From: a virus
Reading direction: 5' to 3' (one strand)
IMG/VR virus record: IMGVR_UViG_3300022602_000192
Location: 1 to 41,487 of that record
DNA length: 41,487 nt
Shown: piece after piece, positions 12,968-29,466 of the stretch
Numbering within the stretch: the stretch's first letter is position 1
How the letters are laid out: every line of letters starts with the position of its first letter
Program-made: the position numbers and the translations under genes
The notes under the pieces: model-generated
Databases searched by the model: none
The model's input: only the letters and a program-made list of their open reading frames with translations
Told to the model about the DNA's origin: nothing

Positions 12968-13939
12968 ATGGCAACTTTGGCTGAAATTCGAGCAAAACTA
13001 AAAGCATCTGAGCAAAAAGGTTCAGGAGAAAGAACTGGGGGCGATAATTCAATTTACGCATTCTGGAACTTAAAAGAAGGTGACGAATCCGTTCTGCGAT
13101 TCTTACCAGACGGCAACACAGATAACACATTTTTCTGGGTTGAACGTGCAATGATCAAACTTCCCTTTGCAGGTATCAAAGGCGAATCTGAAAGCAAAAA
13201 CATCACAGTACAAGTACCATGCATGGAAATGTATGGCGATTCTTGCCCAATCTTAACAGAAGTGCGTCCTTGGTTTAAGGATCCAGCATTAGAAGATATG
13301 GGTCGTAAGTACTGGAAGAAACGTAGTTATATTTTCCAAGGTTTCGTTGTAGAAGACGGACTTCAAGAAAAAGAAACTCCAGAAAATCCAATCCGTAGAT
13401 TTATCATTGGTCCTCAAATTTTCCAATCAATTCGTGCCGCATTAGTGGATCCAGAGTTGGAAGACTTGCCAACTGATTATGTGCATGGCTTGGACTACCG
13501 CATGAAGAAAACATCAAAAGGTGGTTATGCTGACTACTCAACTTCAAGTTGGGCACGTCGTGAGCGTCCACTAAGTGATACAGAACAAGCCGCAGTTAAG
13601 CAATATGGCTTGTATAACTTGTCAGACTTCCTACCTAAGAAGCCAGGTGAAGTTGAATTGAAAGTTATCAAAGAAATGTTTGAAGCATCAGTTGACGGCG
13701 AGCCATATGATATGGATCGTTGGGGACAATATTTCAAACCAGCAGGTATTAGCCAGAACACAGGCGATCCTGTAAAAGCAACTCCTAAAGCAAGTGCTCC
13801 AATCGATGAAATCGATCCAGACGAAGCACCAGTAGCTAAGGCAACTCCTGCTCCAGCACCAAAGGCTGAAGCAAGTGCCGGCGGTGATAGTCGTGCCCAA
13901 GACATCTTGGCAATGATCCGTAATCGTCAAAAGCAATAA
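12968..13939 (+). CDS. gp32: Single-stranded DNA-binding protein gp32
   Basis: 323 residues. It coats ssDNA at forks and recombination intermediates. The N-terminal basic/helical segment (MATLAEIRAKLKASE) is the cooperativity domain. The core holds FWNLKEGDESVLRFLPDG and a Cys pair in VPCMEMYGDSCPI, where part of the T4 zinc site lies; a full set of zinc ligands is not obvious. Aromatic-rich segments such as KYWKKRSYIFQGFVV fit the OB fold. The C-terminal ~70 residues are Ala/Pro/Asp-rich and end in a short helix (AQDILAMIRNRQKQ), the protein-interaction tail. A clear AAAGGAG site precedes the ATG. Confidence 0.95.
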   Translation: MATLAEIRAKLKASEQKGSGERTGGDNSIYAFWNLKEGDESVLRFLPDGNTDNTFFWVERAMIKLPFAGIKGESESKNITVQVPCMEMYGDSCPILTEVRPWFKDPALEDMGRKYWKKRSYIFQGFVVEDGLQEKETPENPIRRFIIGPQIFQSIRAALVDPELEDLPTDYVHGLDYRMKKTSKGGYADYSTSSWARRERPLSDTEQAAVKQYGLYNLSDFLPKKPGEVELKVIKEMFEASVDGEPYDMDRWGQYFKPAGISQNTGDPVKATPKASAPIDEIDPDEAPVAKATPAPAPKAEASAGGDSRAQDILAMIRNRQKQ

Positions 13940-13987: not shown

Positions 13988-15043
13988 ATGGCTACAAAAG
14001 CCTTCGATTTATCAAAGTTTAGAAAAACCCTAACCAAGTCAATTGATGGTTTAGGTGTAGGATTCAACGATCCTACAGATTGGGTTAGTACAGGCAACTA
14101 TACGCTTAACTATCTAATCTCAGGCGACTTCCACAAAGGAGTTCCGCTTGGCAAAGTTACTGTATTTGCCGGCGAATCAGGTGCAGGTAAGAGTTTTATC
14201 TGTTCAGGTAATCTAGTGCGTAACGCACAACAACAAGGCATTTATGTTATCTTAATCGATACAGAAAATGCACTTGATGAAGCATGGTTACATGCTCTAG
14301 GTGTTGATACAAGTGAAGAAAAATTGCTCAAACTCAACATGGCAATGATCGATGATGTGGCAAAAACCATTCACGAATTCATGAAAGAATACAAGGAAAT
14401 GACTGACCGTCCGAAGGTCCTCTTTGTCATAGACAGCCTTGGTATGCTACTAACACCTACTGATATTAATCAGTTTGAAGCGGGTGATTTGAAAGGTGAC
14501 ATGGGCCGTAAGCCTAAAGCATTAACAGCACTTGTTCGTAATTGTGTTAACATGTTTGGTAATTATAATGTTGGTATGGTATGTACTAATCATACATACG
14601 CTAGCCAAGATATGTTTGATCCAGATGATAAGATTTCAGGCGGACAAGGATTTGTTTATGCAAGTTCTATTGTTGTTGCTATGAAAAAACTCAAACTTAA
14701 AGAGGATGAGGACGGCAACAAAGTGTCAGATGTAATGGGTATTCGTGCAAGTTGCAAGATTATGAAAACTCGTTATAGCAAGCCTTTTGAAACTGTACAA
14801 ATTAAGATCCCATACGAAACAGGTATGAATCCTTACTCAGGTATGGTTGATATGTGCGAAAAAGCCGGCATATTAAAACAAGAAGGCAACCGCTTGAAGT
14901 GGGTTGACCCTGAGACAGGTGAGGAATTCAAATTCTACCGAAAAGAATGGAAAGATGATAAATTAGATATGATAATGAACAAATTTCATATCAAAACTGA
15001 AACAACAACCATTCCTGAGGAGACAGTAGAAGATGTTGAATGA
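13988..15043 (+). CDS. uvsX: RecA-like strand-exchange recombinase UvsX
   Basis: 351 residues. Catalyses ATP-dependent strand exchange for recombination-dependent replication. Walker A is GESGAGKS (about 62-69), the catalytic-site region has DTENALDE (about 91-98), and Walker B is VLFVIDS (about 144-150). The motif KISGGQGFVYASS corresponds to the DNA-binding loop 2 region. Length is near T4 UvsX (391 aa). A TTTAGGAG site lies before the start. The 3' end overlaps the next ORF by 11 nt, and uvsY follows. Confidence 0.97.
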   Translation: MATKAFDLSKFRKTLTKSIDGLGVGFNDPTDWVSTGNYTLNYLISGDFHKGVPLGKVTVFAGESGAGKSFICSGNLVRNAQQQGIYVILIDTENALDEAWLHALGVDTSEEKLLKLNMAMIDDVAKTIHEFMKEYKEMTDRPKVLFVIDSLGMLLTPTDINQFEAGDLKGDMGRKPKALTALVRNCVNMFGNYNVGMVCTNHTYASQDMFDPDDKISGGQGFVYASSIVVAMKKLKLKEDEDGNKVSDVMGIRASCKIMKTRYSKPFETVQIKIPYETGMNPYSGMVDMCEKAGILKQEGNRLKWVDPETGEEFKFYRKEWKDDKLDMIMNKFHIKTETTTIPEETVEDVE

Positions 15044-15266: not shown

Positions 15267-15721
15267 TGGGTTGGTATTCTGAAGTTGCGAAAGACATTTC
15301 AAACATTCCCGATGCGGCTGTTTATTTTGAAGCGGAGTTATTAGAAGCTAAAAAAGAATGCCGTATATCGGGCAATGTTGAACGTGCCGCGGCATTAATG
15401 CCCGGTATCGTTGAAGAACGTTTTGCTCAACTGCAAGAAATTGAAGCAATTTTAGAGTACCTTAATATCGAACTTCGTAGACTTAAAAGCAGTCACTTCC
15501 GCAAATACTTGGAAAATTATCAACGTGCTCTAAGCTCAAGAGATTGTGAAAAATTTGTAGAAGGCGAAGCGGATGTAGTTGACTTTGAAAAAATTATCAA
15601 TGAATTTGCCCTACTACGCAACAAGTGGTTAGGTATTACTAAAGCACTTGATCAGAAGCAATGGCAAATTACAAACATTGTGAAATTGCGTGTTGCTGGT
15701 ATGGAAGACGCATCATTATAA
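15266..15721 (+). CDS. uvsY: Recombination mediator UvsY-like
   Basis: 151 residues, almost all helical. The C-terminal region (FALLRNKWLGITKALDQKQW, then QITNIVKLRVAGMED) parallels the T4 UvsY end (W...ALDAIKSRG...HIQDMRA). The central charged helix LQEIEAILEYLNIELRRLKS with FRKYLENYQRALSS fits the coiled multimerising part. UvsY loads UvsX on gp32-coated ssDNA. Context (gp32, uvsX, uvsY, uvsW together) supports the call, although identity with T4 is low. Confidence 0.8.
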   Translation: MGWYSEVAKDISNIPDAAVYFEAELLEAKKECRISGNVERAAALMPGIVEERFAQLQEIEAILEYLNIELRRLKSSHFRKYLENYQRALSSRDCEKFVEGEADVVDFEKIINEFALLRNKWLGITKALDQKQWQITNIVKLRVAGMEDASL

Positions 15722-15725
15722 AAGT

Positions 15726-16226
15726 ATGTTTGTACGGTATAACAACGTATTGAATGATGAAGAATTAGCATATTGCCAACAACGGGTATTTAAAACAGCA
15801 ACTTGGGCATATGGTGGTTATAGTCGATCCCTCGACGATGAATTTTTTTGGAATATGGATTTAACAACCGACGAGTTTTTTACAAAACTGTTTTTTGAAA
15901 AAATTAAAAAAATTACAAACAAAAATTTTATATTAGAAAAAGTATATGCAAACGGTGCCACTTACGGACAACCTGCTCAACTCCATTCCGATGGTCGTGA
16001 ACCTAATGCGTATACATTTTTATTTTATCCAAACCCTAAATGGCAACCTTCTTGGCAAGGCGGAACATTGTTTCAAAAAGATAGTTTAAATGTAACTATA
16101 GCTCAATACATTCCAAATTCTGGAATATTATTTAAAGCAAACATATTGCATTCTGCAATTGAGCATAGTAAACAGTTTACCGGACTACGAGTCTCAATAG
16201 CATTTAAATTAAAAGAGATAAGTTAA
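15726..16226 (+). CDS. 2-oxoglutarate/Fe(II)-dependent oxygenase (no. 1 of 5)
   Basis: 166 residues from ATG 15726; an earlier in-frame start at 15690 would sit in uvsY. The jelly-roll iron site is intact: H87 and D89 in QLHSDGREP, H142 in KANILHSAIEH, and R155 in GLRVSIAFKL for 2-oxoglutarate. WQGGTLF and PNSGILFKA are typical double-stranded beta-helix strands. These enzymes hydroxylate proteins, nucleic acids or small molecules; the substrate here is unknown. The gene follows uvsY by 4 nt and is the last before a terminator. Confidence 0.85.
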   Translation: MFVRYNNVLNDEELAYCQQRVFKTATWAYGGYSRSLDDEFFWNMDLTTDEFFTKLFFEKIKKITNKNFILEKVYANGATYGQPAQLHSDGREPNAYTFLFYPNPKWQPSWQGGTLFQKDSLNVTIAQYIPNSGILFKANILHSAIEHSKQFTGLRVSIAFKLKEIS

Positions 16227-16287: not shown

Positions 16288-16316
16288 TTGCATTTTAAAA
16301 TATGTCAGCGTATACT
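16288..16316 (+). promoter_or_regulatory. Sigma-70-like promoter, leaderless spacing
   Basis: TTGCAT (16288-16293), a 17-nt spacer and TATACT (16311-16316) sit directly after the terminator. The ATG at 16324 is 7 nt past the -10 element, so the predicted transcript starts at or beside the start codon. Confidence 0.65.
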
Positions 16317-16323
16317 AACTAAC

Positions 16324-17526
16324 ATGACTACTGTAGATAATCTTTTAATAAAAATAATCGATCACCCAGATAACTATGCCAAGAATCTTTTTGCAAAAAA
16401 GGACTTTGACATACTTAATAATCTGTACAAATCCATCACGGCTAATTTCTTCATAACAGAGAATCAAGGCAGATTGCTAGTAAAAATTCTCAAAGAAAAT
16501 CAAAAGAAATTACCGGAGTTTACAGCTGATATAGACGAAGCAATTGCCGCTCCTATATGGTCAAGAACCTTTCGACATGTAGAACAGATAAAAAAATTCT
16601 ATATTGAAAAAAATCAACAAGATGAGCTGGTACTAGCTATCGAATTCACTTTTAGCTCTCAATTACGCAAAGTTATAACTGAGTTAACTAAGGCATGCGA
16701 TGGCGTTGTTTTATCAAATAATAATAAAAAATATTGGGCAGATTTAACAGAAAGAAATATTGTAAAGATTGTTGAAGCATTACGTCCGTTGAACTTTGAA
16801 ATAGATGAAACTATCAAAAATCACTACAATACCATAAAATCGTGGTCAGAAATTAATGTTACTGATCAATTTTTAATTGCCAACATGCCTGGGCAAAACT
16901 TTCAAAAACACATCACTGCTGACTTAGGTATCGAAACAGCTATCGATCAAAACATCATTGTTGACCGTAGTATGCGTTATCAGTACCAACCTGAAAATCC
17001 CAGAAAAATTGGTGAAAATTTGACTGAAATTATTGCCAACAGAACTAAAACAAAAATCTGGATAGGTAAAAATGATTACGATGTTGCATCAGTTATTGAG
17101 TCTTTGATTGAGTTAAAACGTCTTCCAGTGTTAGTTGTTTTTGATACGTTTGTCAACGACAAATATTTAGAAAATTTAGAAATACTATCTGATGCACTGG
17201 AAAAAAATGGAATTTTTGACGGCATAGGCATTTATTTTAGACTACCGAATGACAATGTTGGTACAAAGTTTAACCAACTGATTAAAGAAAAATCATACAA
17301 TAAAAATTTAGATCGAGATACAAAAGTGGCGGTAGTACAAAGTGGAAAACTTCCTAAATTTTTCTTAAAAAATGCATGGCAACCAATGAGTGTTATAGCA
17401 TTAGATACTAAGATGGGTTTACGACACGGTAAAACTAGTGTATACTCTAATTGTTGTGACTTGATAGTTGAGTGGGCAGAAAAAGAAGTTTTATTTGAAA
17501 GCAAGGTAATTGGCAAATGGCAGTAA
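16324..17526 (+). CDS. Conserved T4-like phage protein coupled to uvsW, unknown function
   Basis: 400 residues from ATG 16324 (an upstream in-frame start at 16288 lies in the promoter). No family was recognised with certainty. The N-terminal half is helical. The C-terminal half has alternating strands and helices (LPVLVVFDTFVND, DGIGIYFRLPND) and a phrase KLPKFFLKNAWQPMSVIALD that I associate with an unnamed cyanophage-type protein. It shows no Walker A or nuclease motif. The last 10 nt overlap uvsW, so it is probably a UvsW partner or replication/repair factor; that is inference. Confidence 0.75.
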   Translation: MTTVDNLLIKIIDHPDNYAKNLFAKKDFDILNNLYKSITANFFITENQGRLLVKILKENQKKLPEFTADIDEAIAAPIWSRTFRHVEQIKKFYIEKNQQDELVLAIEFTFSSQLRKVITELTKACDGVVLSNNNKKYWADLTERNIVKIVEALRPLNFEIDETIKNHYNTIKSWSEINVTDQFLIANMPGQNFQKHITADLGIETAIDQNIIVDRSMRYQYQPENPRKIGENLTEIIANRTKTKIWIGKNDYDVASVIESLIELKRLPVLVVFDTFVNDKYLENLEILSDALEKNGIFDGIGIYFRLPNDNVGTKFNQLIKEKSYNKNLDRDTKVAVVQSGKLPKFFLKNAWQPMSVIALDTKMGLRHGKTSVYSNCCDLIVEWAEKEVLFESKVIGKWQ

Positions 17527-18986
17527 GACTAGTTATTAAAGACGAAGTTAATATTAAGTTTGAAAACTTGAGTCTCGAAGCACGAAAAAAATTAGCCAAT
17601 ACATTTAAGTATGAGGATCCTACTGCTAGATATCGCCCTGCTTACAAATTAGGTCGGTGGGACGGCAAAGTCAGCATGTTTGGACTTGGAGGCAATGGCT
17701 ATCTAAGTCAACTAGAAAAATGCATGGAAATATTATATGACATGCATATTCAAATTGAAGATGTTGAAGATCAAAGAAACACAGGTAAAATTTTCTTTGA
17801 ACCAGTTACAACACAATATTGGGCAGATCAAGGTAAAGTTTGGCCAGAAGGGCATAGATTTGCCGGACAGCCTATAGTACTGCGTGATGACCAAGTAGAA
17901 GTAGTTAATAGATTTTTTGAGCATACACAAAGCCTACAAGAAGTAGCGACAGGTGCCGGCAAAACAATTATGACTGCAACACTAGCTCATTGTTGTGAAA
18001 AATATGGGCGTACCATTGTCATAGTACCTAACAAAGATTTGGTTACACAAACAGAAGAAGACTTTGTCAATGTGGGATTAGATGTTGGTGTTTATTATGG
18101 TGATAGAAAAATGCTTAATCATACACACACTATCTGTACATGGCAAAGTCTAAACATATTAGATAAGAAAAGCAAGAACTGGGATGCTGACATAGCCGTT
18201 ACACTAGCAGAATTTTTAGATGGAGTTTCTACAGTCATTGTCGATGAAGTTCACATGGCCAAGGCCGAAGTTCTTAAAAATTTGCTGACACAAAATTTAT
18301 GCAATGCACCTATTCGTTGGGGACTGACTGGTACTGTTCCTAAGGATGATTTTGAAGCACAACCTATTTTTGCATCAATTGGCCCAGTAGTAGGCGGCAT
18401 CAAAGCACACGAACTACAGGAGATGGGAATACTGAGCAATCTCCATGTAAACGTGCTACAATTAATAGATTTACCAGAATTTGGATCCTATCAAGAAGAA
18501 TTAAAATATCTTGTCACTAACAAAGACCGGATGACTTATATCAGTAAACTCGTTAAAGGCTTATCAGATTCAGGCAACACACTAATCCTAGTCAATAGGA
18601 TTGATACAGGCAAATTATTAACAGAAATGATAGACGACGCTGTGTTTATTTCAGGCGAAATTAAAGGAACAAAGAGAAAAGAGGAGTACAAGGAACATGC
18701 AACAAGTGACAATAAAATTACTGTGGCGACTTATGGTGTGGCCGCTGTGGGTATTAATATTCCTCGTATCTTTAATTTGGTTCTTTTGGAACCCGGAAAG
18801 AGCTTTGTCCGCGTTATACAATCTATTGGACGTGGTATTAGGAAAGCAGAAGACAAGGACTTCGTACAGATCTGGGATTTAACTTCGACTTGTAAATTTG
18901 CAAAACGTCACCTCACAACGAGGAAAAAATTTTACAAGGATGCCAAATATCCATTTACTTTAGAAAAAGTGGATTGGCAAAAATAA
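17517..18986 (+). CDS. uvsW: Recombination/replication helicase UvsW
   Basis: 489 residues, superfamily 2. It unwinds R-loops and branched DNA, switching replication from origin-primed to recombination-primed. An N-terminal DNA-binding region (~1-110) precedes the helicase core: Walker A VATGAGKT (about 143-150), DEVH box (about 243-246), motif III TGT (about 271-273), and motif VI QSIGRGIRKAED. Length is near T4 UvsW (about 500 aa). It overlaps the preceding gene by 10 nt, and the next start follows after 6 nt. Confidence 0.96.
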   Translation: MAVRLVIKDEVNIKFENLSLEARKKLANTFKYEDPTARYRPAYKLGRWDGKVSMFGLGGNGYLSQLEKCMEILYDMHIQIEDVEDQRNTGKIFFEPVTTQYWADQGKVWPEGHRFAGQPIVLRDDQVEVVNRFFEHTQSLQEVATGAGKTIMTATLAHCCEKYGRTIVIVPNKDLVTQTEEDFVNVGLDVGVYYGDRKMLNHTHTICTWQSLNILDKKSKNWDADIAVTLAEFLDGVSTVIVDEVHMAKAEVLKNLLTQNLCNAPIRWGLTGTVPKDDFEAQPIFASIGPVVGGIKAHELQEMGILSNLHVNVLQLIDLPEFGSYQEELKYLVTNKDRMTYISKLVKGLSDSGNTLILVNRIDTGKLLTEMIDDAVFISGEIKGTKRKEEYKEHATSDNKITVATYGVAAVGINIPRIFNLVLLEPGKSFVRVIQSIGRGIRKAEDKDFVQIWDLTSTCKFAKRHLTTRKKFYKDAKYPFTLEKVDWQK

Positions 18987-18992
18987 GGAATC

Positions 18993-19499
18993 ATGCAGAT
19001 ATTAACATTAGATAACGAAACATTCTCATTAAACAATTTACCGGAAGAAGTAGACGAAAATACTAGATTTGCAGTACTAGATAACGCAGTGCCATCAGAT
19101 CCAGATTTTTTGTTTATGCCATTAATATTCTTAGAAAGTTTTAATAGCCCAGCAATGGTTCTTAAAATTGGAGAAGATGAAGTAGCTATGCCTATTGATT
19201 GGTCGATAGCAGTAGGTGATAGTCAAAGTGGGTGTGATATTGAAATTTTACCCTTAACTAGTTTAAATGATCGTGGATTTGAAGCATTAATTTTTAACCC
19301 ATTAAGTTCGTTTAGGGTAGAGTTTAAGAAAATACAAATTGTAAATTTTTATAATGATGTCAAATGGTATTTTCCTAAAATGAAAAATAATCAATTATTA
19401 GCTACTCCTACACGATTTGGGGGGAAGCCAGATTGTGCGTATTTTGTCAAAGAAATTAGCCGTCAAAGCGAAATTATACAATTGGATAAATTATTATGA
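18993..19499 (+). CDS. Conserved small phage protein, unknown
   Basis: 168 residues, beta-rich, with no recognised domain. Strands such as SPAMVLKIGEDEVAMPIDWS and CDIEILPLTSLNDRGFEALI alternate with loops, and the protein ends in KEISRQSEIIQLDKLL. AAGGAATC precedes the ATG. It overlaps the next gene by 4 nt (ATGA), opening a run of ten tightly coupled small genes. It could be a partner of the adjacent oxygenase, but nothing in the sequence proves this. Confidence 0.7.
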   Translation: MQILTLDNETFSLNNLPEEVDENTRFAVLDNAVPSDPDFLFMPLIFLESFNSPAMVLKIGEDEVAMPIDWSIAVGDSQSGCDIEILPLTSLNDRGFEALIFNPLSSFRVEFKKIQIVNFYNDVKWYFPKMKNNQLLATPTRFGGKPDCAYFVKEISRQSEIIQLDKLL

Positions 19500-20125
19500 C
19501 ACTAAAAATTGCATACTTCCAACCAATGACTTTGGCAATTGATCATGTTCCGCCTGTTGAATTTAGTAAAATTTATGCACTTGCTGAAAATCTACATCAG
19601 CATCCGGAACTGAATGATAACAATAACAATCCTTTTATTAGTATACGTGGCGGACAGCAAATACAAGTATATCCTAATCAATTGGGTATAGATGTAGGCT
19701 GGTTAATAACGTGGTTGGAATCAATTTGCAAAGGATACATGGAAATTGTTTCTCAGCAAAGCGGCACTACTGAATTAAAATTATGTCGTCCAAAAATTGT
19801 TAGCGCATGGACTATACGTCAATTTGAGGGAGACTATCAAGAAATGCACAGTCACCCTGCCGGACATTTGAGCGGCAACATTTATATTTCAGCTCCTGAA
19901 TTTTCAGATAATAGATTATCTAGTGACGGACAAATAGCATTTAAATTACCACACGTCAAAGACGTTAGTAAATTTATCATGAATGATGTTTGGAAATATG
20001 ATCCAACTCCGGGTACAGTTATTCTATTCCCTAGTCATTTACCTCATACTGTTTATCCATGGAAAGGAGTAGGACATAGAACTGTTTTAGCGTTTGACGC
20101 AATACTAGTACCGAAGGATCAGTGA
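19496..20125 (+). CDS. 2OG-Fe(II) oxygenase, HxH type (no. 2 of 5)
   Basis: 209 residues. The C-terminal half matches the pattern of the TIGR02466-like putative 2OG-Fe(II) oxygenases: W105 region, MHSHPAGHLSGNIYIS with H118 and H120, VILFPSHLPHTVYPW with H184, and GHRTVLAFD with R195. The third position of the usual HxD is His here, a known variation in this subgroup; metal binding should be tested. It is translationally coupled on both sides (ATGA with the previous gene, TGATG with the next). Confidence 0.78.
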   Translation: MTLKIAYFQPMTLAIDHVPPVEFSKIYALAENLHQHPELNDNNNNPFISIRGGQQIQVYPNQLGIDVGWLITWLESICKGYMEIVSQQSGTTELKLCRPKIVSAWTIRQFEGDYQEMHSHPAGHLSGNIYISAPEFSDNRLSSDGQIAFKLPHVKDVSKFIMNDVWKYDPTPGTVILFPSHLPHTVYPWKGVGHRTVLAFDAILVPKDQ

Positions 20126-20403: not shown

Positions 20404-20860
20404 AGAAATTATTCCGTTAGTTGATCTAAACGCAAGATCTGCTTGGGCTGAAGCTAGCGAAGATGAGCGTAAAGAAATTAAAGGGGATATGTATAATCTT
20501 AATCGTTATATCAGTAGTGTAAAAAGCAATAAACAAGAAGTACAAGAACATTTTATACTGACAGTAAACGAATATTATAATAAACATTGGGCTAGTCTAC
20601 AAAATCATCCCAATTTGTTGTGGCAGTTGTTGTGTATGTGTAGTTATGATGGCAAGACACAATTCTTTCACGAATGGATTCCAAATAAAAAACGTGATAC
20701 AAAAGGCGGCAAAAAAGCCAAGTTACTAGAAGAATTAATGCCAGACAGAAAAATTGATGAGATAGAATTATTAGCAAGTATCAGCACAGATAAAGAAATC
20801 AAGGACCTAGCAAGAGCACACGGCTGGGATGAGGCTACTATTGCTAAAAAATTAAAATGA
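20375..20860 (+). CDS. Possible clamp-loader small subunit (gp62-like)
   Basis: 161 residues, helical. The region FFHEWIPNKKRDTKGGKKAK followed by LLEELMPDRKIDEIELLASI resembles, at the level of pattern, the part of T4 gp62 around VPRGKRYGKWAKLVED. The NRYISSV...HFILTVNEYYNKHW stretch also looks like the phage clamp-loader A-subunit family. In T4-like phages gp62 normally lies beside gp44 and gp45, which are not here, so context does not help. The call is tentative; the alternative is a conserved phage unknown. Confidence 0.4.
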   Translation: MANKHIDLFKEIIPLVDLNARSAWAEASEDERKEIKGDMYNLNRYISSVKSNKQEVQEHFILTVNEYYNKHWASLQNHPNLLWQLLCMCSYDGKTQFFHEWIPNKKRDTKGGKKAKLLEELMPDRKIDEIELLASISTDKEIKDLARAHGWDEATIAKKLK

Positions 20861-21552
20861 TGGCACTGATAAATCAACCTTACGTTTGTCAATATTGTAA
20901 CAAAGGGTTTATGCAAGAAAAAACTCTTGCAGTACATGTCTGTGAGCAAAAACGTCGGCATCTAGCTAAATCAGAAAAACATGTAGTGTTAGGTTATGAT
21001 ACTTACAATAGATTTTATAAAACTACACAAAATAATAAAGGCGCTGACAAAACATATGATGACTTTGCTCGTAGTCCTTATTATAATGCATTTGTCAAGT
21101 TTGGTAGTTTTGTCAGCAATGTAAATCCTTTATATCCAGATAGATTTATCAACTATGTTGTTACCAGTGGAGTTAAATTAGATCATTGGTGCAGAGATGA
21201 ATTGTATGATGACTATGTTGTGCATCTAATAAAGACAGAATCAGTTGAAACCGCGCTTGAAAGAAGTATAAGTCATATGTTGAGTTGGGCCAATGACAAC
21301 AACTCACAATTTAATCATTACTTCCTATATGTTAGTTTGAGTCGTGCTACATTTGATATTAAAGACGGTAAGATTAGTCCATGGGTTGTATTAAATTCTG
21401 CCAGTGGCAAAGACATGCTAAAGAAATTTAACGATGAGCAACTAATGGCTGTCAGCGCCGTTATGGATGTTCCTTTTTGGTTGAGTAAATTTAAAAAATT
21501 ACCGGCAGATACTGAATTAGTTAAACAAGTAATCAAAGAGAGCAATATATAA
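20857..21552 (+). CDS. C2H2-like zinc-finger protein upstream of mini-DnaE
   Basis: 231 residues. The N terminus has a zinc-finger-like unit, YVCQYCNKGFMQEKTLAVHV, with C-x2-C then H and Cys/His following (HVCEQKRRH), which suggests nucleic-acid or protein binding. The remainder is a helical/mixed domain (YDDYVVHLIKTESVETALER, SHMLSWANDNNSQFNHYF) that was not recognised. The start overlaps the preceding stop (ATGATG; either Met is possible), and its stop overlaps the mini-DnaE start (TAATG), so the two are made together. A DNA-adaptor role for its partner is inference. Confidence 0.7.
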   Translation: MMALINQPYVCQYCNKGFMQEKTLAVHVCEQKRRHLAKSEKHVVLGYDTYNRFYKTTQNNKGADKTYDDFARSPYYNAFVKFGSFVSNVNPLYPDRFINYVVTSGVKLDHWCRDELYDDYVVHLIKTESVETALERSISHMLSWANDNNSQFNHYFLYVSLSRATFDIKDGKISPWVVLNSASGKDMLKKFNDEQLMAVSAVMDVPFWLSKFKKLPADTELVKQVIKESNI

Positions 21553-22121
21553 TGCCAGATATTGATTTAGACTTTGCAGATAGAACAAAAGTTTTAGGAG
21601 TATTAAGACATATAGATGCACGGCTTGATACAGATAAAAAACACAATACTGGGATTTACGTACAGAGTATACCATTTAATCCTATTACTGGTATAAGTAC
21701 TATAGATTATAAGACTGCGGAAGATCGCGGATATTTTAAGATAGATTTTTTAAATGTTAGCGTATATGAAGGTGTAAAAGATAAACAACACCTTACAAAA
21801 TTATTGGAGACAGATCCTTTATGGGACCTATTACTAGAAGACGACTTCGTCAACAAACTCTTTCACGTGAATGGGCACGGTGCTATCTTGCGACAAATGA
21901 AGCCTTCCTCGATAGAACAATTAGGCGCAGTATTAGCAATGATACGTCCGGCAAAACGACATCTGATAGGCAAGGACTGGGCCACTGTGATGAGCGAAAT
22001 TTGGACAAAACCTGAAGGCGACGAATATTATTTTAAGAAAGCACATGCCATTGCTTATGCACATGTGATTGTTGTTCAAATGAATTTAATTTGTGAGAGG
22101 TTAAGCAATGGAACGAGTTGA
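21552..22121 (+). CDS. Miniature DnaE-like protein (C-family DNA polymerase palm/finger remnant)
   Basis: 189 residues that read as a condensed bacterial Pol III alpha subunit. MPDIDLDFADR (2-11) matches the DnaE PDxDxDF palm motif with D3 and D5. HNTGIYVQSIPFNPI (31-45) matches the HAGGVVISP segment. STIDYKTAEDRGYFKIDFLN (49-68) matches the TQFDKND...KFDFLG segment with the third palm aspartate, D65. LFHVNGHGAILRQMKPSSIE (103-122) and VLAMIRPAKR match the finger segment FQLES.GM...LKP...LVALFRPG. FKKAHAIAYAHVIVVQMN matches KSHSAAYALVSYQT. The PHP domain, thumb and all C-terminal domains are absent. Polymerase activity is doubtful; a primer/DNA-binding or host-replisome-interfering role is possible. 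Confidence 0.72.
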   Translation: MPDIDLDFADRTKVLGVLRHIDARLDTDKKHNTGIYVQSIPFNPITGISTIDYKTAEDRGYFKIDFLNVSVYEGVKDKQHLTKLLETDPLWDLLLEDDFVNKLFHVNGHGAILRQMKPSSIEQLGAVLAMIRPAKRHLIGKDWATVMSEIWTKPEGDEYYFKKAHAIAYAHVIVVQMNLICERLSNGTS

Positions 22122-22764
22122 TCTTTCAAATATTGGTATTATTAAATCTCAAGCAAGTCCCGAATTAATGAAAATAGTTGGCGATGAAGTTTTTAAAATT
22201 CAATCAGATTTTTCTAAAGCAACTGCTAGGAATCATACACTAGCAGGTAATATTATACACGAATATCAATTGTTTGATTGTGTAACTGCTTTAGAAAATA
22301 AAACTAAAGAAATGGCCATGATGCATCAAGAATGCTACGGACAAAGTTATAGTACTGGATTGATGGCACATACTACAATACCTAACAAAAACAATAAACC
22401 TAATTTAAAATTAAACAGTGCATGGGTAAATTTCCAGCAAAAGGGAGAATTTAATCCAATACATAATCACACAGGATTATATAGTTTTGTATTATGGTTT
22501 AAGGTTCCCTATCATGACGATATAGAAACATCAGCAGGCCCAGGAAGGTTATCTAAAAATAATCTTTCAGGAAAATTTAGTTTTGAGTATGTAAATATTT
22601 TAGGATATATACAGAGCGCCCCTATCGCTGTTGATAAAAAATGGGAAGGACAAATGTTATTGTTTCCGTCGTTGCTAAATCATCAAGTATATCCCTTTTA
22701 TAGTAGTAACAAATACAGGATAAGTATTTCAGGTAATTTATTTTTAACCTCGGAAGAAAAATGA
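22108..22764 (+). CDS. 2OG-Fe(II) oxygenase-like protein, HxH type (no. 3 of 5)
   Basis: 218 residues. SAWVNFQQKGEFNPIHNHTG carries H119 and H121. MLLFPSLLNHQVYPF carries H192, and KYRISISGNLF carries R204. The pattern equals that of the oxygenase at 19496, with HxH in place of HxD, but the two differ widely in sequence. It begins 14 nt inside the mini-DnaE gene and overlaps the next oxygenase by 4 nt. Substrate unknown. Confidence 0.75.
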   Translation: MERVDLSNIGIIKSQASPELMKIVGDEVFKIQSDFSKATARNHTLAGNIIHEYQLFDCVTALENKTKEMAMMHQECYGQSYSTGLMAHTTIPNKNNKPNLKLNSAWVNFQQKGEFNPIHNHTGLYSFVLWFKVPYHDDIETSAGPGRLSKNNLSGKFSFEYVNILGYIQSAPIAVDKKWEGQMLLFPSLLNHQVYPFYSSNKYRISISGNLFLTSEEK

Positions 22765-23396
22765 ACATAGAATATTTTGAAACCCCAATTCCCCACATTA
22801 TTATTAGAAATGTATTTGATGAAAACAATCTTAAAGGTGTTTGGAAAGAACTAGATTTTTTAACTGATTCTAATAAACTATTACCTCCAGAACAATCTAG
22901 ATCTGCTAAAAAGTTTGGAGTAGTATTAAAGAAAAATCATGCAATATATTTAGAAGATGTTTATAAGTCTGCAAGATTCTCAAATATTTTTAATGCCACA
23001 CAATCCAGTGTTTCTAAAAAAATTATTCAAGAAATAATGTCTAAGCACCCTGTTTTTAATTGGTTTAAAAATGTTAATAATGAATCTATTTTAGTTAGCT
23101 ATTATGAAAATGATGATCGATATCTGCCTCATGAAGATAGCTCAGTCTATACAATACTCATAAATTTTTATAAAGAACCAAAAGCGTTTACTGGAGGCGA
23201 TCTTACTTTAGGAACTTCAGGTTATACAATTCCTTTAGAAAATAATAGAATGATTATTATTCCAAGTTGGGCTACCCACGGAGTTACTCCTGTTAAATTT
23301 ACAGATAATTATACACCTATGTCGGGTATGGGTAGATACACGATTAGTATATTTTCTTTTATTGAAAATAAATTACCGCCTGAGGAAACAAGATGA
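22761..23396 (+). CDS. 2OG-Fe(II) oxygenase, prolyl-hydroxylase-like (no. 4 of 5)
   Basis: 211 residues. SYYENDDRYLPHEDSSVYTI holds H124 and D126. The sequence FTGGDLTLG is a typical jelly-roll strand, IIIPSWATHGVTPV holds H173, and GRYTISIFSF holds R192. All cofactor ligands are present. The layout resembles prolyl-4-hydroxylase-type enzymes found in T4-like marine phages. It is coupled by ATGA overlaps on both sides. Confidence 0.85.
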   Translation: MNIEYFETPIPHIIIRNVFDENNLKGVWKELDFLTDSNKLLPPEQSRSAKKFGVVLKKNHAIYLEDVYKSARFSNIFNATQSSVSKKIIQEIMSKHPVFNWFKNVNNESILVSYYENDDRYLPHEDSSVYTILINFYKEPKAFTGGDLTLGTSGYTIPLENNRMIIIPSWATHGVTPVKFTDNYTPMSGMGRYTISIFSFIENKLPPEETR

Positions 23397-23962
23397 AAGA
23401 TATTGTAATATTAGACGATGTTATACCGCCACGCTATCAAGATTATATTGAGGAATTTTTATTAGATAATAGGCAAATGGATTGGCACCTAGTAAAAAAT
23501 TTAACTGCGCAGACAGGTAGCAAAGAATTAGGAAATGTTGGTTTTAGTGTACAATGTATAACAGATGGTGAAGATCATGGTGCATTAGCATTTGTGTTAA
23601 GGGGGTTGTGTTATTCTGCATCTGCTAAATTTGGCCATGATTTTAAAAACATTATGAACGCTAGAGCATTCCTACAAACACCAAACGGCACTCCTAAATC
23701 ACTTCCAGCGTTTCACGTAGATCACCCTAAACCACATACTGTGTTATTGTATTATGTAAATGATTCCGATGGCCCGACAATGATAGCAAAGCAACGATAC
23801 CCATTTAGTCATCCTAATATTACAGGACTTAAAAATGCAGAAATTCTAATGGAAGTAGAACCTAAAAAAGGAAGAGCTGTGTTGTTTAACGGTGCATATT
23901 TTCATGATAGTAGCGTACCGTCTACAAATTTAAGATGTGTCGTTAATTTTAATTTGACTTAA
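23393..23962 (+). CDS. 2OG-Fe(II) oxygenase (no. 5 of 5)
   Basis: 189 residues. LPAFHVDHPKPHTVLLYYVN holds H108 and D110, the conserved strand TVLLYYVNDSDGPT follows, GRAVLFNGAYFHDSSVP holds H171, and LRCVVNFN holds R181. This arrangement (YYVN...G.T, V.P..GR...F.....H....P....R...N) is standard for phage 2OG oxygenases. It ends the rightward run and overlaps, tail to tail, the leftward gene at 23959. Confidence 0.87.
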   Translation: MKDIVILDDVIPPRYQDYIEEFLLDNRQMDWHLVKNLTAQTGSKELGNVGFSVQCITDGEDHGALAFVLRGLCYSASAKFGHDFKNIMNARAFLQTPNGTPKSLPAFHVDHPKPHTVLLYYVNDSDGPTMIAKQRYPFSHPNITGLKNAEILMEVEPKKGRAVLFNGAYFHDSSVPSTNLRCVVNFNLT

Positions 23963-25482: not shown

Positions 25483-26448
25483 ATGAGTCTAATTGCGGAT
25501 ACACTATTACAATATCTTCCGGGCAAACGTAAACATACTCCAAGCGGTTGGATAGGGTTTAATGCTGTCTGCTGTGATGACAAAAGACAGCGTGGTGGAT
25601 TTATTGTCAACGGCGGCGATGCTGTTAGTTATCATTGTTTTAATTGCGGATTCAAATGTTCATGGCAACCAGGTCGCCATATCAGCAAGAAGATGAATCA
25701 ATTTATGCGTGATTTATCTATACCCGATGATGTTATTAGCCAACTTAGGCTAGAAGCACTTAGACTAGATCAAAACAATACCGCAGAAGTCCGCTCAATA
25801 GTTCCTAAATTTGATATCAGGGCATTGCCCATGGACAGTCAATTGATTACAGACTTGCTAAACGATCCTCCAGAAAAACTTATACCTGTATTAGAATACA
25901 TGGTTAGTAGAAAAATTTATCCTGAAGATTTTCCTTTCTATTGGACTCCTAAAGTTGGATTTAGCAACAGACTTATTATTCCATTTTTGTTTAATAATGA
26001 AATTGTAGGGTGGACTGCCCGAGCTGTTAATGATGCTACTCCTAAATACTTGTCAGAGCAACAGCCTGGTTATGTGTTTAATTTAGATCGTCAGCGGAAT
26101 GATAGAGAGTTCGTAATTATTAGCGAAGGTCCCTTCGATGCGCTAAGTATTGACGGATGTGCTTTGCTTGGAGCAGAGATTAAAGATAGTCAAAATTGGT
26201 TACTAAAACAACTAGGCAAAGAAATTGTACTAGTCCCAGACAGAGATGAAGCAGGTAAAGCAACCTTAGAGCAAGCCTTAGAATTAGGTTGGGCGATTAG
26301 TATGCCTGATTGGCCCAAGGGCATTAAAGATATTAATGATGCTGTGGTTAAACTAGGTAAACTAGCTACCATGTGGTTAATAATATCTGCTAAAGAATCA
26401 AACAATCTTAAGATACAATTGAGAGCAAAAAAATGGTTCAACGAATAA
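25483..26448 (+). CDS. gp61: DNA primase gp61
   Basis: 321 residues. Makes RNA primers for lagging-strand synthesis with gp41. The N-terminal zinc-binding region has Cys30/31 and CFNCGF (C52, C55). The TOPRIM domain has VIISEGPFDALS with Glu215 and VLVPDRDEAGK with D253 and D255. Length is close to T4 gp61 (342 aa). Helicase gp41 is two genes downstream. The 38-residue ORF starts inside its end. Confidence 0.95.
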   Translation: MSLIADTLLQYLPGKRKHTPSGWIGFNAVCCDDKRQRGGFIVNGGDAVSYHCFNCGFKCSWQPGRHISKKMNQFMRDLSIPDDVISQLRLEALRLDQNNTAEVRSIVPKFDIRALPMDSQLITDLLNDPPEKLIPVLEYMVSRKIYPEDFPFYWTPKVGFSNRLIIPFLFNNEIVGWTARAVNDATPKYLSEQQPGYVFNLDRQRNDREFVIISEGPFDALSIDGCALLGAEIKDSQNWLLKQLGKEIVLVPDRDEAGKATLEQALELGWAISMPDWPKGIKDINDAVVKLGKLATMWLIISAKESNNLKIQLRAKKWFNE

Positions 26449-26549
26449 TTAACTTTATTTTATCACCGTGGCGAATGTGGCAAGAACGCCGAGCATTTAA
26501 ACGTCGACTGGAAGAATTGCGGAAACGTGATCCTTTTATTTACAAATGA
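26433..26549 (+). CDS. 38-residue basic protein between gp61 and carbamoyltransferase
   Basis: A very short gene overlooked by a length cutoff. ATG 26433 overlaps the last codons of gp61, and TGA 26547-26549 overlaps the next start as ATGA. It encodes an amphipathic, aromatic and Arg-rich peptide, beginning MVQRIINFILSPWRMWQERR and ending in RKRDPFIYK. The perfect coupling on both sides and a composition I associate with small proteins of related phages support it as real. A hydrophobic first helix suggests membrane or protein association; function unknown. Confidence 0.75.
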   Translation: MVQRIINFILSPWRMWQERRAFKRRLEELRKRDPFIYK

Positions 26550-28015
26550 TTAGTTGGGGCATATCCGGTAACAGCCACGATGCGGCACTGGCCGTATTTC
26601 TTGACGAGAAATTAGCATTTGCTAGCCATAGCGAAAGATTTAGCAGAATAAAAAATGATAGAGATCTCAATAGGGACATAGTTGCTTATGCTAAACGTTT
26701 TGGTTCTCCTGATAAAATTTATTGGTATGAAAAACCATTCAAAAAAACACTACGCCAATTATTTGCAGGGCAAGGATGGAAGCGCAGAGATAACGATATT
26801 GACATTTATATGGCTCGATATGAGATTGATGCTCCTATTGTTTATACTGATCATCATCATAGTCATGCGGCCGCTGGATACTATACAAGTGGATTCAATG
26901 ATGCATGTGTCTTAGTCATAGACGCAATTGGCGAGTTTGAAACCATGACCATATGGCAAGGCGCTGGAACTAAACTTAAGAAATTATGGAGCAGGAGTTA
27001 CCCACATAGCGTTGGACTTTTTTATTCTGCCATGACTCAACGTATAGGATTGAAACCCAACGAAGATGAATACATTACAATGGGTATGGCAGCTTATGGA
27101 GAACATAAAGACTATCTCCATTCTATGATGACAGACTTCATCAAAGACAGCGAAGAATTTAAGTTTAAGAAAAATCTACACAGAGGATGTCAGGATTGGC
27201 GGCCAGATTTAACTGTCGCTGACAGTTTTGAAATAGCGGCTAGTACACAACTAATGTATGAAATCTTATTCCGTAGTGCATTAGAAAAAGCAAAATCGTT
27301 GTCTAAGAGTAAAAATCTAGTACTCATGGGAGGATGTGCATTAAACTGCCTAGCTAATAGGTTTACTGGGGTTTACTTTGACAAAACGTGGATTTATCCT
27401 AATCCCGGAGATGCAGGTAGTGCCATTGGAGCAGTACTAGCACATAACCCGCATTGGAAGGATTATACTGATTGGAGTAATAATTTCTTAGGATACGATA
27501 TGGGTTATCGGACAACTGATGAAGAAATTGTTAGCTATTTAGAAGATCATAAAATATGTGGTGTTGCCCGTGGACCAGCAGAGTTCGGGCCACGTGCATT
27601 AGGCAATAGAAGTTTATTAGCAGATCCCCGCGGAGAAAATATAAAGGACCAAGTAAATGCAATCAAACAACGACAACAATTTAGACCATTTGCACCAGCG
27701 ATACTCGAAGAGCTTGTTGATGAGTATTTTATTATGCCTCGTGGCTGGAGTGATAGTAGGTATATGCAAGTTGTCGCTAGTTTACGGAATCCTGAGCTTT
27801 ATCCTGCTGTCGTGCATCGTGACGGAAGTTCACGTGTACAGACTGTTCCGCAAGATGGAAGTGCTTTCAGAAAACTCTTAGAACTTTGGTATGCTCGAAC
27901 TGGATGCCCTATGTTGTTAAACACCAGTCTAAACATTAAAGGACAACCAATGGTTAATGATCATACCGATGCTCGAAACTTTGAACGCCATTACGGTGTT
28001 AAAGTGTTTAATTAA
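26546..28015 (+). CDS. Carbamoyltransferase (NodU/CmcH family)
   Basis: 489 residues. Transfers a carbamoyl group from carbamoyl phosphate via ATP to a hydroxyl group. The N-terminal Kae1-like domain shows GISGNSHDAALAVF, ERFSRIKND, DHHHSHAAAGYY with its metal-binding His cluster (about 102-109), and DEYITMGMAAYG. MGGCALNCLAN and NPGDAGSAIGA complete it. The C-terminal domain shows RGPAEFGPRALGNRS and RPFAPAIL. All signature parts are present. It sits between primase and helicase genes, unusual for a small-molecule tailoring enzyme, so a DNA or nucleotide acceptor is worth considering. Confidence 0.92.
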   Translation: MISWGISGNSHDAALAVFLDEKLAFASHSERFSRIKNDRDLNRDIVAYAKRFGSPDKIYWYEKPFKKTLRQLFAGQGWKRRDNDIDIYMARYEIDAPIVYTDHHHSHAAAGYYTSGFNDACVLVIDAIGEFETMTIWQGAGTKLKKLWSRSYPHSVGLFYSAMTQRIGLKPNEDEYITMGMAAYGEHKDYLHSMMTDFIKDSEEFKFKKNLHRGCQDWRPDLTVADSFEIAASTQLMYEILFRSALEKAKSLSKSKNLVLMGGCALNCLANRFTGVYFDKTWIYPNPGDAGSAIGAVLAHNPHWKDYTDWSNNFLGYDMGYRTTDEEIVSYLEDHKICGVARGPAEFGPRALGNRSLLADPRGENIKDQVNAIKQRQQFRPFAPAILEELVDEYFIMPRGWSDSRYMQVVASLRNPELYPAVVHRDGSSRVQTVPQDGSAFRKLLELWYARTGCPMLLNTSLNIKGQPMVNDHTDARNFERHYGVKVFN

Positions 28016-28032: not shown

Positions 28033-29466
28033 ATGCCACAAAATACAGATTACGGTTACGATATACAAAAATTATACTTAGAAATGATGCTAGCAGATGC
28101 GGCAACATTTGTTCGTTGTCAAAGCATTTTTGATGCAAGTCTATTTGATAGACGACTACAAGCACCTGCAGAATTTATGAACAAGTATGTTGAGGATCAC
28201 AATGTCATGCCCACACAAGACATTGTAAATGCCGCCACAGGCAGTGATTTTAAGGTTTCAACAGACTTACGTGAAGAACATTTTGATTGGTTGCTAACAG
28301 ACTTTGAAACATTTATTCGACACAAGGGTTTAGAAAAAGCCATCTTGGAATCAGCAGACTTGCTTGAAAAAGGTGAGTACGGTCCGGTGGAAGAAATGAT
28401 TAAAAAAGCAGTACAAGTGGGCTTAACCAAGGACATGGGTACTGATTATTTCTTAGATCCTCGGGCTCGATTAATGCGTATCAAGGACAATAACGGACAG
28501 GTGTCTACTGGTTGGAAAGCCATGGATGACAAATTGTTTGGCGGTATGAATCGAGGTGAGTTGAATATTTTTGCTGGCGGATCGGGTGCTGGAAAATCAC
28601 TATTTTTAGCAAATTTAGGTATCAATTGGGCGTTAGCAGGACTTAATGTTGTATACCTAACATTAGAACTTTCAGAGGAACTAGTGTCTATGCGTATGGA
28701 TGCAATGGTAACTGGAATGGCCACTAGAGAGATTTTTAAGAACATCGATGACGTCGAAATGAAAGTTAAGATGGTAGGTAAAAAATCTGGTTCTTATCAG
28801 GTAAAATACATGCCAAGTGGTAAAACTGCCAATGATATCCGCAGTTATTTAAAAGAGTATGAAATCAAAACTAATCGCAAAGTTGACGTATTGTTAGTTG
28901 ACTATTTAGACTTGCTAATGCCGCAATCGAAGAAAATTAGTCCAGCAGACTTGTTTATTAAAGACAAATATGTATCCGAAGAATTGCGAAATTTAGCAGT
29001 AGAAAAGAACTGTGTGTTTGTAACTGCGGCACAGTTGAATCGTGGTGCTGTTGAAGAAGTTGAGTTCGATCACAGTCATATCTCGGGCGGTTTAAGTAAG
29101 ATTCAAACAGCAGATAACGTGTTTGGTATCTTTACGTCACGTGCTATGCGTGAACGTGGGCGTTATCAAATTCAGCTGATGAAAACTCGCTCATCGAGCG
29201 GTGTTGGTATGAAGATTGATTTAGAATTTAATATCGACAGCCTACGCATCACTGACTTGGCTGAAGAAGAAGGTTATGGAAATCATAACAGTCAAAGTGC
29301 AGGATCAACATTGCTCAATAGCATCAAGCAACGTCAAACTGTTAATGCATCAACTGGTGAAATAACTGATCCAATGGCAGGTGTTGCTGTACCAAAAGTC
29401 AAGGCTAATGTCGAGTCTAGCAAGCTAAGAGAACTACTCAACAACTTGCCTGGCGACGATATCTAA
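28033..29466 (+). CDS. gp41: Replicative DNA helicase gp41
   Basis: 477 residues, DnaB-like superfamily 4. It unwinds the fork as a hexamer and partners with gp61. An N-terminal helical domain (~1-130) precedes the RecA-like core: Walker A GGSGAGKS (about 182-189), a glutamate segment LTLELSEELV, Walker B VDVLLVDYLDLL, and TAAQLNRG plus HISGGLSKIQTAD downstream. Length matches T4 gp41 (475 aa). All ATPase motifs are intact. Confidence 0.96.
   Translation: MPQNTDYGYDIQKLYLEMMLADAATFVRCQSIFDASLFDRRLQAPAEFMNKYVEDHNVMPTQDIVNAATGSDFKVSTDLREEHFDWLLTDFETFIRHKGLEKAILESADLLEKGEYGPVEEMIKKAVQVGLTKDMGTDYFLDPRARLMRIKDNNGQVSTGWKAMDDKLFGGMNRGELNIFAGGSGAGKSLFLANLGINWALAGLNVVYLTLELSEELVSMRMDAMVTGMATREIFKNIDDVEMKVKMVGKKSGSYQVKYMPSGKTANDIRSYLKEYEIKTNRKVDVLLVDYLDLLMPQSKKISPADLFIKDKYVSEELRNLAVEKNCVFVTAAQLNRGAVEEVEFDHSHISGGLSKIQTADNVFGIFTSRAMRERGRYQIQLMKTRSSSGVGMKIDLEFNIDSLRITDLAEEEGYGNHNSQSAGSTLLNSIKQRQTVNASTGEITDPMAGVAVPKVKANVESSKLRELLNNLPGDDI

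What the first reader, a model, noticed from the sequence alone, without database searches (positions are those of the whole stretch)
21552..22121. A 189-residue miniature DnaE that keeps the three palm aspartates
Seen: segments matching DnaE in order - PDIDLDF (D3, D5), HNTGIYV, KIDFL (D65), LFHVNGHG...LRQMKPSS, VLAMIRPAKR and KKAHAIAYA. Known: in E. coli DnaE D401, D403 and D555 form the palm active site, and a thumb of ~80 residues lies between them. Here the gap is ~60 residues, so the thumb is gone, as are the PHP, tau-binding and OB parts. Inference: it could be a degraded polymerase reused to bind primer-template DNA, nucleotides or the host clamp/replisome. T4-like phages use the unrelated gp43, so a C-family fragment is unexpected.
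Basis: partly seen in the sequence, partly recalled or inferred. Interest (0 to 1): 0.78.

Follow-up and report, generated by a model that had tools for sequence, protein, structure and literature searches.

The report
Half of a split miniature phage polymerase
This small viral gene makes one half of a stripped-down DNA-copying enzyme whose other half, in related viruses, is encoded far away on the genome; the arrangement was described in 2021, I found no test of its function, and this window adds a new member.

Summary
It is a C-family (DnaE) palm plus shortened fingers: phrog_11778 "DNA polymerase", E 6e-67; profile and fold comparisons also lead to Pol III alpha. It does not look degraded: D3, D5, D7, K63 and D65 are identical in 76 of 76 distinct relatives and dN/dS is about 0.06-0.13 in unsaturated pairs. 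In relatives a second gene, 11-224 kb away, encodes the missing palm half with GxGRGS (63 of 63) and stops just before the position where this protein starts at MPDIDLDF. Of 13 named records, 13 have the C half, 12 the N half, 13 a family B polymerase. Iyer et al. 2021 (PMC7824862) already reported this split minimal Pol III, so it is a new member of a known kind. Loss of the distal fingers, the neighbourhood counts and a 141-kb phage with both halves were not in the passages I read. Activity is inferred; the window is a fragment without its own N half.

The parts
21552..22121 (+). C-terminal half of the split miniature Pol III alpha (189 aa): catalytic DxDxD strand, third Asp strand, shortened fingers, final helix
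   Evidence: ORF; phrog_11778 E 6e-67; profile; AlphaFold and VIA-align
21558..21572 (+). Codons of D3, x, D5, x, D7 (= E. coli D401, D403, D405)
   Evidence: 76 of 76 distinct relatives keep D3, D5, D7; positions
21744..21746 (+). Codon of D65 (= E. coli D555), third metal-binding Asp, in KIDFL
   Evidence: 76 of 76
21945..21956 (+). R132-P133-A-K135 motif of the fingers (DnaE RPGP, here RPxK)
   Evidence: R132, P133, K135 in 76 of 76
20857..21552 (+). Upstream C2H2-type gene, phrog_11058, function unknown; its last base is the first base of the polymerase gene
   Evidence: 58 of 60 listed C-half records are in the list for this gene; found upstream, at distances from overlap to 8.7 kb, in 76 of 77 IMG/VR loci with room
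25483..26448 (+). Toprim-domain primase-like gene (neighbourhood)
   Evidence: PF13155; found in 48 of 48 IMG/VR loci with over 5.5 kb downstream
28033..29466 (+). DnaB-type helicase (neighbourhood)
   Evidence: PF03796; found in 40 of 40 loci with over 7.5 kb downstream
12968..13939 (+). gp32-like SSB (neighbourhood; below Pfam cut-off)
   Evidence: PF08804 E 6e-5
13988..15043 (+). UvsX/RecA-type recombinase (neighbourhood)
   Evidence: PF00154
15266..15721 (+). UvsY-like recombination mediator (neighbourhood)
   Evidence: phrog_231 E 1e-15
17517..18986 (+). UvsW-like helicase (neighbourhood)
   Evidence: PF04851 and PF00271; name by gene order in PAC2

Best explanation
The ORF encodes the metal-binding half of a two-chain, miniature C-family DNA polymerase. 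The partner gene, elsewhere in the genome (seen in relatives, not in this 41-kb fragment), supplies the first part of the palm with the GxGRGS phosphate-binding motif. The C half supplies D3, D5 and D65 and a shortened finger region. The two chains assemble without covalent joining into one palm: N half about E. coli 273-393, C half about 401-784. The pair lacks PHP, thumb, distal fingers, HhH/clamp region and OB. It most likely acts as an accessory polymerase beside the phage's family B polymerase, for example in short gap filling, repair or recombination synthesis, with positioning provided by phage replisome proteins. Shown: homology, complementarity, co-occurrence and conservation. Inferred: assembly, catalytic activity and the job.
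For: C half in phrog_11778. A second Pol III piece in each of 4 complete phage records, over the PF07733 cut-off in 4 of 4, in phrog_11127. The N-half profile hits E. coli DnaE 319-393 at E 7e-5. Its model aligns to E. coli 273-393, and the nine entries listed at Z 2 or more are all Pol III. The C-half model aligns to E. coli 400/401-784. N halves stop right after an EF(L/F) tail; 57 of 63 have the same 35-residue tail length. GxGRGS 63 of 63; D3, D5, D7, K63, D65 76 of 76. Both halves in 59 of 60 listed C-half records, which include GenBank/RefSeq duplicates, and PolB in 13 of 13 checked. dN/dS about 0.06-0.13. Neighbours: primase-like and DnaB genes downstream of the C half; gp44-type clamp loader 0.9-1.6 kb downstream of the N half in 4 of 5 annotated N-half regions fetched, the fifth (RAS14) having only hypothetical proteins. 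A DnaQ-type exonuclease lies within 5 kb of the C half in 6 of 13 related genomes.
Against: No biochemistry. The distal fingers with YQEQ and LRRAMGKK are absent and no second finger piece was found in 13 genomes, which may cripple dNTP binding. The GRGS loop of the N-half model is below pLDDT 50. Foldseek has no match at E 0.001 or better (best 0.07 for N, 0.012 for C), and VIA Z of 8-10 is in the range where unrelated folds can also score. The N half's first 60 residues have no assigned counterpart. The window's own N half is unseen. A PolB is also present in relatives, so the enzyme may be redundant. For DnaQ, 4 of 13 related genomes have no match at E 0.01 and one is below cut-off. In XacN1 no primase or helicase is annotated within 6 kb of the C half.
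Confidence: 0.66

Rival explanations
1. A catalytically dead remnant kept as a DNA-, nucleotide- or clamp-binding subunit.
For: Thumb and distal fingers missing; a PolB is present in relatives, with both motifs DxNSLYP and DTDS in 5 of 6 genomes looked at.
Against: Metal ligands D3, D5, D65 and the N-half GRGS motif are identical throughout, down to 32% (C) and 27% (N) identity to the alignment's first sequence; a dead binder would be expected to lose metal ligands.
Confidence: 0.14
2. An active nucleotidyltransferase that is not a template-directed polymerase, for example adding one or a few nucleotides to ends or to another acceptor.
For: The pol-beta-type palm core is kept while thumb and distal fingers, which grip template and incoming dNTP in Pol III (recalled), are gone.
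Against: The family sits with primase, DnaB helicase and clamp loader genes; RPxK and KKxHAxxYA finger elements are retained.
Confidence: 0.12
3. The pair is the main replicase of these phages and PolB the accessory enzyme.
For: Regular occurrence with primase-like and helicase genes and of the two halves together.
Against: PolB is present in 13 of 13 named records and 2 long IMG/VR contigs, with both catalytic motifs in 5 of 6 genomes looked at; in Atu_ph07 only the first was seen in the frames examined. The mini-enzyme ends before the clamp-binding and OB regions.
Confidence: 0.05
4. The halves are joined into one protein by a split intein or by RNA trans-splicing.
For: Some cyanobacterial Pol III genes are split by an intein (PMC3919608, passage); another phage DnaE is interrupted by a LAGLIDADG gene at this spot.
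Against: N halves end 0-2 residues after the EF(L/F)+1 tail and C halves start at, or up to about 20 residues before, the DxD motif, leaving no room for intein parts; no Rfam RNA in the window.
Confidence: 0.03

Closest known systems
Split minimal DNA polymerase III alpha of group 2.2 jumbo phages (Iyer et al. 2021, PMC7824862; passages, section 3.4.1)
   Same: Short C-terminal Mg/template-binding protein and separate N-terminal NTP-binding protein in distant genes, beside a family B polymerase, no PHP
   Different: This window is a fragment of an IMG/VR virus, 33-53% identical to the listed named phages; N half and PolB are not in the fragment. Finger deletion, C2H2 neighbour, DnaQ proximity and a sub-jumbo member were not found in the passages read
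phrog_11778 (C half) and phrog_11127 (N half)
   Same: E 6e-67 for the window protein; N halves of four named phages E 8e-46 to 2e-87
   Different: PHROGs only labels both DNA polymerase
Bacterial DnaE (Pol III alpha)
   Same: Palm and proximal fingers, D401/D403/D405/D555 equivalents
   Different: Two chains; lacks PHP, thumb, distal fingers, HhH/clamp region, OB (about 360 aa in total against 1160)
Microbacterium phage Krampus gp56/gp57
   Same: Phage DnaE encoded by two genes
   Different: Adjacent genes; the cut lies between PHP and palm, and the polymerase chain is 767 aa with full palm, finger and HhH matches
Lysinibacillus phage LC76P1 DnaE
   Same: Coding sequence broken at the same place, directly at the DxD motif
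   Different: PHP-bearing enzyme interrupted by a LAGLIDADG gene in between, perhaps a mobile intron (Rfam negative)

Membership tests
Split minimal Pol III alpha of group 2.2 jumbo phages | Standalone C-terminal half starting at the DxD motif, about 190 aa | tested here: met
Split minimal Pol III alpha of group 2.2 jumbo phages | Separate N-terminal half with GRGS motif in the same genome | tested here: inconclusive
   Window is a 41-kb fragment without it (G000); present in 12 of 13 named records and 2 of 16 IMG/VR contigs, the other 14 being 40-154 kb pieces
Split minimal Pol III alpha of group 2.2 jumbo phages | Family B polymerase in the same genome | tested here: inconclusive
   Not in the fragment (G000); in 13 of 13 named records and 2 of 16 IMG/VR contigs
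Split minimal Pol III alpha of group 2.2 jumbo phages | No PHP domain | tested here: met
   No PHP in the window protein; 0 of 13 related genomes (11 named, 2 IMG/VR) at E 0.01
Bacterial DnaE | Three catalytic Asp (D401, D403, D555) | tested here: met
   D3, D5, D65, 76 of 76; absolute conservation in C family stated in PMC3919608
Bacterial DnaE | Asp at 405 (DnaE groups; Asn in PolC per PMC3919608) | tested here: met
   D7, 76 of 76
Bacterial DnaE | GRGS palm motif in the same chain | tested here: not met
   ORF begins after it; carried by the partner in relatives
Bacterial DnaE | PHP domain | tested here: not met
Bacterial DnaE | Thumb | tested here: not met
   26 against 108 residues between D5 and H31 equivalents
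Bacterial DnaE | Complete fingers (YQEQ, LRRAMGKK) | tested here: not met
   25 against 113 residues; PF17657 matched only within positions 28-95 of 166 at the C-half genes
Bacterial DnaE | HhH, clamp-binding and OB regions | tested here: not met
   Model aligned only up to E. coli 784; no HhH or OB family in the Pfam scan
DNA polymerase (activity) | Primer extension in vitro | not testable with these tools
   -

The most novel reading that the evidence does not exclude
A minimal two-chain polymerase that works without thumb and without the distal-finger segment of other C-family enzymes, so that assembly of the active site from two separately encoded chains is itself the control step. The split may have arisen when a homing intron or endonuclease gene broke an ancestral phage DnaE at the conserved DxD motif, the site occupied by a LAGLIDADG gene in phage LC76P1.
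Probability: 0.15. Interest if true: 0.75.

Novelty: new member of a known kind. Interest (0 to 1): 0.52.

Why it matters
A palm active site split across two genes, stripped to about 360 residues and kept under purifying selection in a broad group of phages, asks how little of a C-family polymerase is needed for catalysis. Iyer et al. used it as a model of an ancestral Pol III. It is directly testable: two ~20-kDa proteins, one mixing experiment. A working pair would give a minimal, separable polymerase.

Tried and rejected
Degraded or repurposed remnant: rejected as first choice because catalytic residues are invariant and dN/dS is low. In one search dS was saturated (infinite) for 4 of the 9 window pairs and near saturation (dS 3.0) for a fifth; those ratios are not used. 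Split intein: no residues available for intein parts. PHP supplied in trans: no match in 13 of 13 genomes. Distal fingers supplied in trans: PF17657 matched at the C-half gene in 10 of 13 genomes, plus one weak hit inside the GAP32 terminase gene, nothing else at E 0.1. Main replicase because PolB is dead: both PolB motifs seen in 5 of 6 genomes looked at; Atu_ph07 showed only the first in the frames examined. The search for related loci with the Phosso N half found nothing; with an IMG/VR N half it found 189. Rfam found nothing in the window (gathering threshold) or around the LC76P1 interruption (E 0.1); ARAGORN found no tRNA in the window. No joint model of the two chains was made because the folding tool takes single unaltered proteins. 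Families absent from the VIA lists are not excluded by them.

Searches for prior description: paper searches, and find-passages in PMC7824862 (plus its section 3.4.1 whole), PMC3919608, PMC12926913, PMC5259590, PMC13282480, PMC11242549, PMC6102473. I saw no biochemistry of the pair in these; most subscription papers and all bioRxiv preprints are not held.

Rows dropped and selection: 97 C-half ORF hits were reduced to 76 distinct proteins and 95 N-half hits to 63 (identical proteins and overlapping loci removed; N termini trimmed to a nearby Met by rule). Alignment A2 is the window plus 64 of the 65 IMG/VR C halves, A3 is 52 N halves (L113 plus 51 of the 52 printed), A4 21 of the 76, A5 19 of the 63. 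Searches listed 40 and 60 of 63 records, one search listed 60 of 146, one search listed 60 of 61. Of the 13 named records, 12 were chosen because they matched the C half and one (RAS14) because it matched the N half, so co-occurrence is tested mainly for the other half and PolB. The Python locus tests cover the 80 loci.

Full report
Observation. The ORF at 21552-22121 (+) is real, 189 aa, starting MPDIDLDF. PHROGs assigns it to phrog_11778 "DNA polymerase" (E 6e-67), with a second match to the 1190-position DNA polymerase family phrog_405 (E 6e-7). Single-sequence matches to Pfam (PF17657, E 0.14, below cut-off) and to the PDB (E 0.5) are weak; 3 of 21 family members reach PF17657 at E 0.01. 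A 21-sequence profile finds Pol III alpha chain 5lew_A (M. tuberculosis DnaE1, recalled) at E 0.0023, with E. coli chains at E 0.6 or worse.

Structure. AlphaFold2 on 65 window and IMG/VR sequences gives pLDDT 87.9, pTM 0.74, with strands at 3-6 and 63-66 that carry D3/D5 and D65. Foldseek's first 11 rows are DNA polymerases of the C family (one, 9qpc, by my reading of its numbering), at weak E-values (best 0.012, none at 0.001 or better). VIA-align 2 places residues 1-187 on E. coli 400-784, Taq 461-841 and PolC 971-1296, Z 8.6-5.3 over the first 14 rows; the next row has Z 3.5. The gaps fall in two places: the thumb (26 residues here against 108 between equivalent sites) and the distal fingers (25 against 113), which in E. 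coli contain YQEQVM (686) and LRRAMGKK (708). I could not measure distances between the three Asp.

It is half of a pair. tblastn finds the protein in 63 phage records; of the 60 listed, 56 are over 280 kb (groups of RaK2, 121Q, GAP32, PA5oct, Atu_ph07 and others) and four are 86-141 kb. Searching four complete genomes for the Pol III NTPase domain (PF07733) and phrog_405 revealed a second, separate Pol III piece in each. Its genes encode 169-188 aa. They belong to phrog_11127 "DNA polymerase" and match PF07733 above its cut-off in 4 of 4. A 19-sequence profile hits E. coli DnaE 319-393 at E 7e-5. The model (pLDDT 83.2, pTM 0.58; the GRGS loop 138-142 below 50) aligns over residues 61-170 to E. 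coli 273-393, the nine entries listed at Z 2 or more being all Pol III; residues 1-60 have no assigned counterpart. In E. coli the sequence runs FLN(391-393)-PERVS-M399-P400-D401. The phage N half stops after EF(L/F) plus one residue, rarely one or two more, and the C half starts at MPD (in the named phages up to about 20 residues before the motif), so the cut is at one place and the two halves are complementary.

Conservation. Among 76 distinct C halves D3, D5, D7, H31, G34, P41, Y53, K63, D65, W91, P118, R132, P133, K135, H165 and Y169 are identical in 76. Among 63 distinct N halves the G-x-G-R-G-S motif is identical in 63, and 57 have the same 35-residue tail length. dN/dS is 0.06-0.09 for four window pairs and 0.08-0.13 for other pairs with unsaturated dS; five of nine window pairs were saturated or nearly so. 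D7 corresponds to E. coli D405, which PMC3919608 gives as absolutely conserved in DnaE groups and Asn in PolC (passage seen), so the fragment is DnaE-like.

Co-occurrence. Of 60 listed C-half records (some are GenBank/RefSeq duplicates), 56 are also among the 60 listed N-half records, and 3 of the remaining 4 have the N half by profile. The exception, PP728206, is an unverified 109.5-kb record of a genus with about 345-kb genomes. Across 13 named records, 12 of them picked as C-half hits, the C half is in 13, the N half in 12 and PolB in 13. Of 16 longer IMG/VR contigs, the two over 200 kb have N half and PolB; the 14 others (40-154 kb) have neither. The halves lie 11-224 kb apart by record coordinates in 14 genomes. 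The pair also occurs in a circular 141-kb record, Alishewanella phage Slicko01, so it is not confined to jumbo genomes. PHP has no match in 13 of 13 genomes. PF17657 matches the C-half gene in 10 of 13 genomes, only within positions 28-95 of 166, plus one weak hit inside the GAP32 terminase gene.

Neighbourhood. In the window the gene follows gp32-like SSB, UvsX, UvsY-like and UvsW-like genes and precedes a Toprim primase-like gene and DnaB helicase. Among 80 IMG/VR loci, the C2H2-type gene (phrog_11058) was found upstream in 76 of 77 with room, from overlapping to 8.7 kb away, primase-like in 48 of 48, DnaB in 40 of 40. In XacN1 no primase or helicase is annotated within 6 kb of the C half. 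In 121Q, RaK2, SCTP-2 and XacN1 a gp44-type clamp loader gene lies 0.9-1.6 kb downstream of the N half; the RAS14 region has only hypothetical proteins; in Slicko01 a replication factor C gene lies near the C half. A DnaQ-type exonuclease passes the cut-off in 8 of 13 related genomes, within 5 kb of the C half in 6; there is no match in G001, G002, SCTP-2, Slicko01 or the window, and Phosso is below cut-off.

Mechanism. Most likely the two chains associate into one palm: N half holds the triphosphate through GRGS, C half holds the metals and part of the fingers, giving an accessory polymerase beside PolB. Homology, complementarity, co-occurrence and conservation are shown; association, catalysis and role are inferred. 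The absent distal fingers leave room for a nucleotidyltransferase that is not a normal polymerase.

Prior knowledge. Iyer et al. 2021 (PMC7824862; [quoted passage not shown] The CBB paper (PMC5259590, passage) noted a truncated 172-aa Pol III alpha and a Pol III epsilon-like protein; the AP-J-162 and Atu_ph07 papers mention Pol III subunits (passages). One phage record carries an HHpred note on the C half as Pol III alpha. A 2026 jumbo-phage review has no occurrence of DNA polymerase, PolIII, Pol III or split in its main text. I therefore score it as a new member of a known kind for which I found no functional test.

Noticed in passing
L209:2804-7350 (Lysinibacillus phage LC76P1, OP172811): A PHP-bearing phage DnaE is interrupted directly at its DxD catalytic motif by a LAGLIDADG gene: the first frame ends FLNPSRVSLAD and the next conserved frame begins TIDIDF. 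This is the spot where the jumbo-phage enzyme is split. Rfam finds no intron there.
   Followed up: partly
L207:2474-5825 (Microbacterium phage Krampus): DnaE encoded by two adjacent genes cut between PHP (gp56) and palm (gp57).
   Followed up: partly
NC_042013 (W01), PP408249 (W03), OQ508956 (W05): The PolB matches fall in two separate open frames, suggesting that PolB itself is split or interrupted; the Atu_ph07 paper lists two DNA polymerase genes, gp276 and gp277 (passage).
   Followed up: no
window 15690-16226, 19496-20125, 22108-22764, 22761-23396, 23393-23962: Three genes match PHROGs labelled 2OG-Fe(II) oxygenase best and two match phrog_274, labelled DNA endonuclease V; 19496-20125 matches both, so the phrog_274 label looks doubtful and five related oxygenase-like genes may surround the polymerase half.
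   Followed up: partly
window 26546-28015: Nol-like carbamoyltransferase gene between the primase-like gene and DnaB helicase.
   Followed up: no
L005-L008, L108, L109; L198, L200: Directly downstream of the N half lies a small gene with a conserved NA(R/K)GD segment, then a GroES-like gene (annotated chaperonin in 121Q, head morphogenesis in RaK2; the likeness is my reading); function of the first is unknown.
   Followed up: no
window 16288-17526: 412-aa ORF upstream of the UvsW-like gene with no Pfam or PHROGs match at E 0.001.
   Followed up: no
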